From an uncultured Bacteroidota bacterium (lineage in GTDB: Bacteria; Bacteroidota; Rhodothermia; Rhodothermales; Salinibacteraceae), in NCBI GenBank assembly GCA_913055845.1, contig CAJXKO010000003.1, forward strand, positions 1 through 64,000: DNA of 64,000 bases. The letters run 5' to 3'. Below the pieces are notes generated by a model. It had not been told where the DNA came from. It did no database searches and saw only the letters and a program-made list of their open reading frames with translations. Both the position numbers and the translations under genes were made by a program. The stretch's first letter is position 1; the number at the start of each line of letters is the position of its first letter. This document shows, in pieces, positions 60,482-63,779 of this stretch.

Positions 60482-61459
60482 CTACCCCGAAAAGACATCG
60501 CGGAGCGGATCGGCCGGTTCACGATGGTCCTCAGGATGGTTGTCGTCGTGACGACGGGGCTCTAGGTGGGCCGTCACGTGTACCTCGTCGTCCGGAAAGA
60601 GGGCATCCACCTGGTCCTCCACGTCGTGAGAGCGGGCGTGGGCCTCTTCGATGGTCATGTCGCCCGGAAACATGAGGTGGTATTCCACCCACACTTGGTC
60701 GCCGGAGCGACGGTGCCGCACCTGATGAAATTCTGCGATGGTTCCATCTGTCTTCGCGTTGGCTAGCTCATCGAGCAATGCCTGCGTGGCGTCCGGGTCG
60801 GCCTCGTCCATGAGCCCGTAGACCGAGCGACGGAGCAGACTGGTGGCGGTCCAAAGAATGTTGACGGCCACGAGAAGCCCTACGACGGGGTCTAGCCAGG
60901 CGATACCGGTGCCCCAGACGAGCCCTACTCCCACGAGCACGCCAAGGCTCGTCCACATGTCCGTCATCACATGCTGCCCGTTCGACACCAGGACGAGGCT
61001 GTTGGTGCGACGCCCGGTGCGAATGAGGTAGCGCCCCAGGGCAAAGTTCACAACTGTGAGACCGCCAAGCAGGAAAAGCCCAGTGTCGAGATCACGCAAT
61101 TGGGTTCCCGTCATCAGGTCGTGTACCGCCATCCACGCAATGCCCACAGCGGCTGCGAGGATGAGAGCGCCCTCTACGGCGGAGGCAAAGTACGCGACTT
61201 TTCCGTGGCCGTACGGATGCTCTGGGTCCGGGGGCGTGGTTGCGTACCAGAGACTGAAGCCCGCAAAGCCGGTAGCAAAGAGGTGAATGACCGATTCCGC
61301 TGCGTCGGAGTAGATGGCGGTGCTGCCCGTGAGGACGGCCGCCGTGAGCTTGCCCACTAGCATTAGGACCGATACGAGCAGGCTTGCCGTCATGGCCCGA
61401 CGCGCGGCCCCCCGGGTCGCGGGGGTGGCATCGTTCTGGGACGTGGGGGTCCTGGTCAT
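60482..61459 (-). CDS. Cation diffusion facilitator family transporter
   Basis: This 325-aa CDF protein has about six helices. The first half includes IYSDAAESVIHLFATGFAGFSLWYATTPPDPEHPYGHGKVAYFAS (SDxxxS plus HPYGHGK) and QHVMTDMWTSLGVLVGVG, the metal-binding H-x3-D of helix V. A cytoplasmic ferredoxin-like C-terminal domain (EVHVTAHLEP) is followed by a His/Glu-rich tail (RRHDDNHPEDHRE). It exports divalent metal such as Zn or Mn in exchange for H+. The track start at 62092 overlaps the next gene; the ATG at 61459 is preferred. Confidence 0.92.
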   Translation of the reverse strand: MTRTPTSQNDATPATRGAARRAMTASLLVSVLMLVGKLTAAVLTGSTAIYSDAAESVIHLFATGFAGFSLWYATTPPDPEHPYGHGKVAYFASAVEGALILAAAVGIAWMAVHDLMTGTQLRDLDTGLFLLGGLTVVNFALGRYLIRTGRRTNSLVLVSNGQHVMTDMWTSLGVLVGVGLVWGTGIAWLDPVVGLLVAVNILWTATSLLRRSVYGLMDEADPDATQALLDELANAKTDGTIAEFHQVRHRRSGDQVWVEYHLMFPGDMTIEEAHARSHDVEDQVDALFPDDEVHVTAHLEPRRHDDNHPEDHREPADPLRDVFSG

Positions 61460-61576: not shown

Positions 61577-62737
61577 ATGCACGTCGAACACATCGGCCTG
61601 GCCGTCGACGAGGTCGCGACCGTAGTAGAGACCTTCGAGAAGCTTCTTGGGAGAGAGCCCTATAAGTCTGAAACGGTGTCCTCCCAACAGGTTCGTACGC
61701 ACTTCCTGGACGCAGAGACCACGAAGCTGGAGTTTCTGGAGGCACTGGGGGCCGAGTCTCCGATCCAGAAATTCTTGGACCGTCGAGGCGAGGGCCTCCA
61801 CCACGTAGCCTTCGCGGTGTCGGACCTGGAGGCCACCATGGCGCGGCTGCGAGACGCGGGCTTCGAACTGCTGAGCGAGACCCCACAGACTGGGGCCGAC
61901 GACAAGGCGGTTGTCTTCGTGCACCCCCAACAGACCCATGGCGTGCTCGTGGAGTTTTGTGCGTCGCAGACGCCCGACTGGTCCCCCACCCGTATCCCCC
62001 GACACAACGACCACTTGTCGGTTTACGAACGGGGGCCAGACAACTGTCCGCCGCTGCTGGTGCTGCACGGCGCCGCCGGTACCACGCGCCACGAGATGGC
62101 GCCTCTCATTCGGCGGCTAGAATCCTCCTTCCACGTGGTGGGGGTCGACCTGAGCGGGCACGGGGCATCGGCGATGCCGGACGGGGCATTTGCCCTCGAC
62201 CTCTTCGCAGCGGACGTCCGCACTGTGTTGGATGCGCTCGATCTTCGCGATGCGCACGTCTTTGGCTTCTCCCTCGGGGGCGGCGTGGCCCTGCACCTGG
62301 CAGCCGAGACCCCGGACCGGGTGCGACGCTTGGCTGTCCTCCAGACCACAGTGGACTGGACGGAGGCCCAGGCCGCGCAAATGAAACAACGCCTGGCCCT
62401 TGACACCCTCAAGGAACAGGCCCCAGGCCGGGCCGAACAGCTGCACTCCCGACATGCAAATACGGCCCGCCTCCTGCGTCGCCTCCAGGCCTTTGTGGAC
62501 ACGCTTCCGGCCGCCTCTGCGACCCTGGCGGACGCGTTTCCGACCCTCACCGCACCCACGCTCGTCGCGGCGATGGACCGAGACCCCCTGTTTGAACTCG
62601 ACGATGCGCTCGCGCTTCATCGGCGTCTCGACAACGCACGCCTCACCATCCTCCCCGGTACGCGACACAACTTCGCCCAGGTGCCGCTGCCGTCCCTTAC
62701 CCCGCTGCTCACCCGCCACTACCTCGACGCCGAGTGA
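61577..62737 (+). CDS. Fusion of methylmalonyl-CoA epimerase-like VOC domain and alpha/beta hydrolase
   Basis: Residues 1-135 form a VOC/glyoxalase domain of methylmalonyl-CoA epimerase type: MHVEHIGLAVDEV (His5), GEGLHHVAFAVSDLEATM (His75/76) and HGVLVEFC (Glu126) are plausible metal ligands. Residues 145-386 form an alpha/beta hydrolase with an oxyanion-region LVLHGAAGTT, the nucleophile Ser232 in GFSLGGG, an acid near Asp334/336 and His364 in PGTRHNF. The ATG at 61577 is preferred over the track start. Standard Mce proteins stop after the first domain, so this is a genuine fusion or a read-through of two genes with no stop between. Reaction of the hydrolase half unknown. Confidence 0.85.
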   Translation: MHVEHIGLAVDEVATVVETFEKLLGREPYKSETVSSQQVRTHFLDAETTKLEFLEALGAESPIQKFLDRRGEGLHHVAFAVSDLEATMARLRDAGFELLSETPQTGADDKAVVFVHPQQTHGVLVEFCASQTPDWSPTRIPRHNDHLSVYERGPDNCPPLLVLHGAAGTTRHEMAPLIRRLESSFHVVGVDLSGHGASAMPDGAFALDLFAADVRTVLDALDLRDAHVFGFSLGGGVALHLAAETPDRVRRLAVLQTTVDWTEAQAAQMKQRLALDTLKEQAPGRAEQLHSRHANTARLLRRLQAFVDTLPAASATLADAFPTLTAPTLVAAMDRDPLFELDDALALHRRLDNARLTILPGTRHNFAQVPLPSLTPLLTRHYLDAE

Positions 62738-62777: not shown

Positions 62778-63779
62778 ATGGCTCTTCCTTCCCATCGATA
62801 TCTCGGCGACACCGGTGTCAAAGTGTCCCCCTTGTGCATGGGTACCATGACCTTCGGCAACCCTGCAGATCCCGACACCTCGGCGGCACTCTTTCGGCGC
62901 TGTCGGGAGGCCGGCATCAACGTGTTCGACTGCGCAGACGTGTACGCAAATGGCCGCTCCGAGGAGATTCTCGGCGACCTCGTGGCCGACTGTCGGGATG
63001 AAGTCGTGCTTACCACCAAGGCGTACTTCCCCACCGGCGATGATCCCAATGCCCGCGGGGCAAGCCGCTACCACCTGGTGCGGGCCGTGGAAAACAGCCT
63101 ACGGCGGCTCGGCACCGATCGGATCGACGTGCTGTTCGTGCACCGCTTCGACGCGAAGACGGCCCTCGACGAAACCCTCCGCGCCCTTGACGACCTAGTG
63201 CGGCAGGGCAAAGTGCTCTACCTGGGCGCCTCCAACTTCGCGGCGTGGCAGGCCATGAAGGCACTCGGTCGGCAACGGGCCGAAGGATGGACGCCATTCC
63301 ACGTGCTCCAGCCCATGTACAACCTGACGAAGCGACAGGCGGAGGTTGAGCTACTGCCCCTGGCCGCGAGTGAAAACCTCGGGGTGCTGTCGTATAGTCC
63401 CCTGGGCGGCGGCCTGCTTACCGGCAAGTACGGCGTGGGCCACCGCCCTGACGACGGACGGCTCGTGGAGAACCCCATGTACCAAACCCGCTACGGCGCT
63501 AAGGTCCACTACGAGGTGGCCGATCGGTTTGCGACCTTCGCAAGCGATCACGGATACGACCCTGTGGCGCTGGCGGTAGCTTGGGTGGCGCATCACCCCA
63601 CCGTTACGGCCCCCATCATCGGCGCCCGGACGCCCGAGCAACTCGCAGACTCGCTTGGCGCGCTGGAGATTGATATGTCCGAGGATCTTCGGGCTGCAAT
63701 CAGCGATCTTGCCCCCACCCCGCCCCCGGCTACCGACCGAGTAGAAGAGCGCTCAGAGCACACCTACGGCGCTCGATAA
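62778..63779 (+). CDS. Aldo/keto reductase
   Basis: This 333-aa NADPH-dependent TIM-barrel oxidoreductase begins YLGDTGVKVSPLCMGTMTFG. The catalytic tetrad is visible as Asp and Tyr in DCADVYANGRSEEI, Lys in VLTTKAYFP and His in VLFVHRFD, and the cofactor segment is ASNFAAWQAM with ARTPEQLADSLGALE near the end. It follows the epimerase-hydrolase fusion by 40 bp. The track start overlaps that gene out of frame; the ATG at 62778 is preferred. Substrate unknown. Confidence 0.92.
   Translation: MALPSHRYLGDTGVKVSPLCMGTMTFGNPADPDTSAALFRRCREAGINVFDCADVYANGRSEEILGDLVADCRDEVVLTTKAYFPTGDDPNARGASRYHLVRAVENSLRRLGTDRIDVLFVHRFDAKTALDETLRALDDLVRQGKVLYLGASNFAAWQAMKALGRQRAEGWTPFHVLQPMYNLTKRQAEVELLPLAASENLGVLSYSPLGGGLLTGKYGVGHRPDDGRLVENPMYQTRYGAKVHYEVADRFATFASDHGYDPVALAVAWVAHHPTVTAPIIGARTPEQLADSLGALEIDMSEDLRAAISDLAPTPPPATDRVEERSEHTYGAR

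What the first reader, a model, noticed from the sequence alone, without database searches (positions are those of the whole stretch)
61577..62737. Methylmalonyl-CoA epimerase fused to an alpha/beta hydrolase
The standard epimerase is about 135-150 aa and stands alone. Here a complete VOC domain runs in frame into a complete hydrolase domain with a catalytic triad. Fusion suggests the two activities act on one CoA-linked pathway or share regulation. The adjacent aldo/keto reductase may be related.
Basis: partly seen in the sequence, partly recalled or inferred. Interest (0 to 1): 0.55.

Follow-up and report, generated by a model that had tools for sequence, protein, structure and literature searches.

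The report
Epimerase fused to an eroding hydrolase
One bacterial gene joins a complete methylmalonyl-CoA epimerase to a complete serine hydrolase; the joined gene is old and shared across the order Rhodothermales, and in many sister families only the hydrolase half has decayed into a catalytically dead stub or disappeared, while the epimerase half stays intact.

Summary
One uninterrupted ORF (61577-62737, +, 386 aa, 42.3 kDa) joins a full methylmalonyl-CoA epimerase (TIGR03081 above its cut-off) to a full alpha/beta hydrolase with triad S232-D334-H364. It is no artefact: the full-length fusion recurs in families f1, f6, f9, f10, f11 and f13 of the order, while every epimerase examined outside the order stands alone. 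It is the genome's only epimerase; mutase and carboxylase genes lie on other contigs, and the adjacent aldo/keto reductase is conserved only in the genus.

The unexpected part is in the relatives. In 34 intact fusions the triad is invariant. In 34 other order members the C-terminal part is a 109-194 aa hydrolase remnant without lid, and none keeps the triad. In 15 it is absent. Epimerase ligand positions stay invariant. The rpoB tree rejects a single eroded clade (p=0.00013), so erosion probably recurred; remnants still evolve under purifying selection. No free copy of this hydrolase subfamily was found in eroded genomes. Best reading: an ancestral Rhodothermales bifunctional protein with an indispensable epimerase and an accessory hydrolase, repeatedly lost (domain atrophy). 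The hydrolase substrate is unknown.

The parts
61577..62737 (+). Fusion gene: methylmalonyl-CoA epimerase + alpha/beta hydrolase, 386 aa, with stop codon
61580..61960 (+). Epimerase (VOC) domain, aa 2-128; positions H5, E52, H76, E126 invariant in 86 sequences of the order
   Evidence: TIGR03081 125.5 bits; residue table; domain tree
61961..62047 (+). Linker and first two strands of the hydrolase sheet, aa 129-157
   Evidence: secondary structure of the AlphaFold2 model
62048..62734 (+). Alpha/beta hydrolase domain, aa 158-386; nucleophile S232 (GFSLG), D334, H364, H164-G165 loop
62363..62545 (+). Helical lid (aa 263-323), the segment missing from the eroded relatives
   Evidence: AlphaFold2 helices; profile alignments of remnants
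60485..61459 (-). Divergent cation-efflux (CDF) gene upstream; conserved neighbour in the order, not part of the fusion
   Evidence: PF01545; neighbour clustering
62778..63779 (+). Aldo/keto reductase downstream; neighbour only in the window's genus
   Evidence: PF00248; neighbour clustering

Best explanation
The gene encodes a bifunctional protein. The N-terminal domain is the genome's only methylmalonyl-CoA epimerase. It would interconvert (2S)- and (2R)-methylmalonyl-CoA between propionyl-CoA carboxylase and B12-dependent mutase by metal-assisted two-base (Glu/Glu) proton transfer. The C-terminal domain is a serine hydrolase (S232-D334-H364) under a helical lid, most likely an ester or thioester hydrolase; its substrate is unknown. 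The fusion arose before most families of Rhodothermales diverged. Because the hydrolase is accessory, it was later lost repeatedly: lid and triad first, leaving a lid-less stub, then further shrinkage, then complete loss. SHOWN by computation: the frame, the domain assignments, conservation of the fusion, the triad pattern, remnant homology, rejection of one eroded clade. INFERRED: both catalytic activities, the substrate class, the order of the decay steps, and any structural role of the remnants.
For: Domain models and model structure. Only epimerase above cut-off in the genome; mutase and carboxyltransferase genes present elsewhere. Fusion in 34 genomes with full length, plus 3 copies cut by contig ends or N, in families f1, f6, f9, f10, f11, f13. 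Outside the order the 12 epimerases extracted end within 0-7 aa of the domain, and the phylum search lists no full-length match there. Triad 34/34 in intact fusions, 0/34 in remnants. Remnants align to the intact hydrolase profile: E 1.6e-25 (f12/f7/f9), 1.3e-7 (f4), 2.3e-6 (f15), 6.7e-6 (f2), 6.8e-6 (f5), 0.0016 (f14); reversed controls at probability 0.8% or lower. Order epimerases form one lineage (except G057) with intact, remnant and bare forms intermingled. A single eroded clade is rejected on rpoB, p-AU 0.00013; family f9 alone holds both states. Remnant dN/dS 0.12-0.56 in the close pairs where it could be estimated.
Against: No activity has been measured. If loss is not assumed irreversible, parsimony needs only 3 changes, so regain of the intact gene by transfer is not excluded. 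Deep nodes of both trees are weakly supported. The hydrolase matches no curated family above its cut-off, so its substrate is a guess. Homology of the f14 remnant is only weakly supported.
Confidence: 0.7

Rival explanations
1. Pathway valve: the hydrolase acts on a thioester of the methylmalonyl-CoA pathway (for example stalled methylmalonyl-, malonyl- or propionyl-CoA) and frees CoA, so the fusion couples two activities on one pathway. This is a narrower version of the best explanation.
For: Fusion to a CoA-thioester enzyme; invariant triad over wide divergence in intact fusions; esterase- and thioesterase-type folds among structure matches.
Against: Loss of the hydrolase while epimerase and mutase stay; no mutase or carboxylase gene linked; the closest free relatives are scattered and their neighbours show no link to the pathway.
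Confidence: 0.3
2. Fusion without functional coupling: two unrelated genes were joined; the hydrolase performs an unrelated small-molecule ester or lactone hydrolysis and is kept or lost by niche. Also a narrower version of the best explanation.
For: Patchy free-standing relatives across Bacteroidota; repeated loss; weaker selection on the hydrolase half than on the epimerase half in most pairs.
Against: The fusion has persisted over the divergence of an order, and no free copy of this subfamily was found in the order.
Confidence: 0.4
3. The intact fusion was gained late and spread by horizontal transfer, or the lid-less C-terminal parts are a separate, never-catalytic domain family rather than decayed hydrolases.
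For: Unordered parsimony needs only 3 changes; the C-terminal parts have almost no Pfam match.
Against: Profile homology spans the whole hydrolase with the lid deleted in f12/f7/f9 and most of it in f4; outgroups have bare epimerase; epimerase and rpoB trees agree roughly on where the intact lineages sit.
Confidence: 0.15
4. Assembly or frame error, or two proteins from an internal start.
For: In-frame TTG, GTG and ATG codons near the junction.
Against: Same continuous frame in many independent genomes, including the G003 chromosome.
Confidence: 0.02

Closest known systems
Methylmalonyl-CoA epimerase (TIGR03081; PDB 3oa4, 6wf6, 3rmu, 1jc4)
   Same: Full VOC domain, score above the curated cut-off, conserved ligand positions, only copy in a genome with mutase
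   Different: The solved chains matched here are 134-161 aa; here about 250 aa of hydrolase follow in frame
Alpha/beta hydrolase fold (PF00561/PF12697), near PcaD-type enol-lactonases, Est1, PDB 3om8 and valacyclovir hydrolase 2ocg
   Same: Canonical sheet, GxSxG nucleophile, Asp and His, helical lid; Foldseek TM-score up to 0.86 by target length (2ocg)
   Different: Below the cut-off of every specific NCBIfam family (PcaDC 103 of 390 bits; PcaD 88 of 256); function unassigned
Free-standing ~230-aa Bacteroidota hydrolases (L195, L196, L197)
   Same: Best-scoring free relatives of the fused hydrolase profile (158-182 bits against at most 124 for the order's own free paralogues)
   Different: Separate genes, start at the third strand, not linked to an epimerase gene
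Domain atrophy (Prakash and Bateman 2015, PMC4432964)
   Same: Loss of core structural elements from a domain inside a retained protein
   Different: That survey reports rare cases, mostly sparing functional sites; here one fused enzyme domain loses its active site, apparently several times in one order, in graded steps down to absence
PcaDC / PcaCD fusions
   Same: A known case of an alpha/beta hydrolase fused to a pathway partner; best NCBIfam hit of the hydrolase half
   Different: Partner is 4-carboxymuconolactone decarboxylase; score far below cut-off

Membership tests
Methylmalonyl-CoA epimerase | Score above the curated equivalog cut-off of TIGR03081 | tested here: met
   125.5 (129.1 for the domain alone) against 114.95 bits
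Methylmalonyl-CoA epimerase | Metal-ligand and base positions conserved (ligand identities from general knowledge; Glu/Glu bases per PMC8142540) | tested here: met
   H5, E52, H76, E126 invariant in 86 order sequences; E32 invariant in the 8-sequence alignment
Methylmalonyl-CoA epimerase | Genome encodes methylmalonyl-CoA mutase | tested here: met
Methylmalonyl-CoA epimerase | Epimerase activity | not testable with these tools
   needs an enzyme assay
Alpha/beta hydrolase fold | Fold and sequence family | tested here: met
   PF00561 85 bits against 25.8; Foldseek best match 3om8, E 1.7e-18
Alpha/beta hydrolase fold | Ser-Asp-His triad | tested here: met
   S232, D334, H364 invariant in 34 of 34 intact fusions; geometry in the model not measured
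3-oxoadipate enol-lactonase (PcaD) | Score above the TIGR02427 cut-off | tested here: not met
   87.9 against 255.85 bits
MenH, BioH, RutD, BchO and the other specific hydrolase families listed | Score above the curated cut-off | tested here: not met
   all far below cut-off
Acyl-CoA thioesterase (as a function) | Hydrolysis of acyl-CoA | not testable with these tools
   needs an enzyme assay
Domain atrophy (remnants in relatives) | Homology to the full domain with core elements missing | tested here: met
   weak for f14
Domain atrophy (remnants in relatives) | Not a truncated annotation or a pseudogene | tested here: met
   open frames of near-constant length within f4, f14 and most of f15, dN/dS below 1

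The most novel reading that the evidence does not exclude
An ancestral epimerase-hydrolase fusion in Rhodothermales underwent independent, graded erosion of one catalytic domain in several families, and the eroded stubs are not junk but are kept by selection as structural parts of the epimerase. That would give a natural series for watching an enzyme domain turn into a non-catalytic appendage.
Probability: 0.42. Interest if true: 0.6.

Novelty: new variant of a known kind. Interest (0 to 1): 0.45.

Why it matters
Fused proteins are often read as evidence that two activities belong to one pathway. Here the fusion is real and old, yet one partner is discarded again and again while the other is kept, which warns against that inference in annotation. 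It also offers a graded natural series (intact, lid-less and triad-less, short stub, none) within one order for testing how an enzyme domain decays inside a protein that must stay functional, and whether the stub gains a structural role.

Tried and rejected
Sequencing error or split gene: rejected. Neighbouring mutase: none, it is on other contigs. Aldo/keto reductase as partner: adjacency only in the genus. Assigning the hydrolase to PcaD, MenH, BioH or a dehalogenase: all below cut-off. Neighbours of the free-standing relatives as a functional hint: nothing linked to propionate metabolism. The first rpoB tree used two antisense frames (G044, G036), corrected; a first IQ-TREE run failed, and the later tree file carries no support values, so FastTree supports are quoted. 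The bare epimerase of G057 falls among outgroups (a likely replacement) and was left out of the one-clade test. Literature searches found no report of this fusion, in an open-access library only.

Full report
OBSERVATION. The ORF 61577-62737 on the + strand starts with ATG, has no internal stop and gives 386 aa, 42.3 kDa. Residues 2-128 score 125.5 bits against the equivalog model for methylmalonyl-CoA epimerase, TIGR03081, above its cut-off of 114.95. Residues 158-366 match the alpha/beta hydrolase families well above gathering scores. The AlphaFold2 model has mean pLDDT 88.7 and pTM 0.72. It shows an epimerase-type domain followed by a canonical hydrolase strand order with a helical insertion at residues 263-323, the lid. 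Foldseek puts the C-terminal half among many serine hydrolases without a clear functional match.

ORGANISM AND GENOME CONTEXT. Genome G003, of the same genus, has a chromosome of 3,551,823 bases, which I recall as Salinibacter ruber DSM 13855, so the window is probably Salinibacter. Named records that bear the fusion are 'Bacteroidetes bacterium QH_7_62_13' and 'Rhodothermales bacterium IP29b_bin.81'. The fusion is the only epimerase above cut-off in its genome. Mutase and carboxyltransferase genes are present on other contigs. Family f3 of the order, which lacks an epimerase match at the threshold used, also lacks the canonical mutase and keeps only a longer mutase frame of about 1159 aa. That co-occurrence supports the epimerase assignment.

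DISTRIBUTION. In the order, 96 of 114 genomes match. I extracted 86 epimerase ORFs and measured what follows the epimerase domain. Thirty-four carry 245-263 aa of hydrolase, and three more are cut by a contig end or a run of N. Thirty-four carry 109-194 aa, and fifteen carry 0-17 aa. Outside the order the 12 epimerases that I extracted end within 7 aa of the domain, and the phylum search lists no full-length match there. Intact fusions occur in f1, f6, f10, f11, most of f13 and two of three f9 genomes; remnants in f2, f4, f7, f12, f14, part of f5, most of f15 and the third f9 genome; bare epimerases in f8, most of f5, G072 and G057.

THE TRIAD IS ALL OR NONE. In the 34 intact fusions S232, D334 and H364 are invariant, as is H164 before the oxyanion loop. 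In the 34 remnants no sequence keeps all three, and only the three f4 sequences keep even two by alignment. The epimerase positions H5, E52, H76 and E126 are invariant in all classes. The remnants are homologous to the hydrolase by profile comparison (E from 1.6e-25 to 6.8e-6; f14 only 0.0016), while reversed profiles give probabilities of 0.8% or lower. In the best-preserved remnants the alignment runs through the whole domain with the lid deleted; the f15 stubs align only with the last part of the domain, where the catalytic His is missing. Pfam barely sees them.

POLARITY. On an rpoB tree the order is one clade and outgroups have bare epimerase. If an intact hydrolase, once lost, is never regained, eight or nine eroded groups are counted, including the loss inside f9. 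One of these groups, G057, is probably a gene replacement, because its epimerase sits among outgroups, and one in the IQ-TREE version is f3, which has no epimerase match at all. Deep branches are weakly supported, so the exact number is uncertain; a single eroded clade is nonetheless rejected (p-AU 0.00013). Unordered parsimony needs only three changes, so regain by transfer of the intact gene is a formal alternative. The epimerase tree places all order sequences except G057 in one lineage with the three states intermingled.

SELECTION AND COMPENSATION. In close pairs the remnants have dN/dS of 0.12-0.56 where it could be estimated, mostly higher than the epimerase half and below 1, so they look translated and constrained rather than freely decaying. 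The nearest free-standing hydrolases are about 230-aa proteins scattered in Bacteroidota, including other orders of the class. In this order every match to that subfamily at E 1e-15 is the fusion itself (37 of 37 genomes), and no eroded genome has one. The threshold is tight (the weakest fusion scores 6.5e-17), so a diverged copy could be missed.

HOW IT PROBABLY WORKS. The epimerase half would deprotonate methylmalonyl-CoA bound through its carboxylate to an active-site metal, using two glutamates (mechanism from PMC8142540). The hydrolase half would attack an ester or thioester through S232 under the lid. Nothing identifies its substrate. The conserved gene neighbours are a cation-efflux gene and uvrC, which are uninformative, and the downstream aldo/keto reductase is conserved only in the genus.

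NOVELTY. Each half is an ordinary family member. The combination was not found in the open-access literature searched. The erosion of one fused catalytic domain fits the published idea of domain atrophy (PMC4432964), but it differs in that the functional site is what is lost, apparently several times within one order. I rate it a new variant of a known kind.

Noticed in passing
L047, L048, L049, L051, L052, L054, L057-L060, L069-L076, L083-L097: C-terminal stubs after epimerase domains that are lid-less, triad-less hydrolase remnants, nearly invisible to Pfam.
   Followed up: yes
L195:2995-3681, L196:2998-3684, L197:2992-3693: A ~230-aa free-standing hydrolase subfamily, patchy across Bacteroidota, that starts at the third strand of the usual fold; function unassigned.
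   Followed up: partly
genomes G028, G042 and relatives (family f3): A family of the order without an epimerase match at the threshold used and without canonical mutase, keeping only a ~1159-aa mutase frame.
   Followed up: partly
L062 (G057): Bare epimerase that falls among outgroup sequences, probably a horizontally acquired replacement of the fused gene.
   Followed up: partly
L048:1522-2961 and similar: A pyridine-nucleotide disulphide oxidoreductase lies beside the cation-efflux gene next to the epimerase in about a dozen loci of the order; a link to CoA metabolism was not examined.
   Followed up: no
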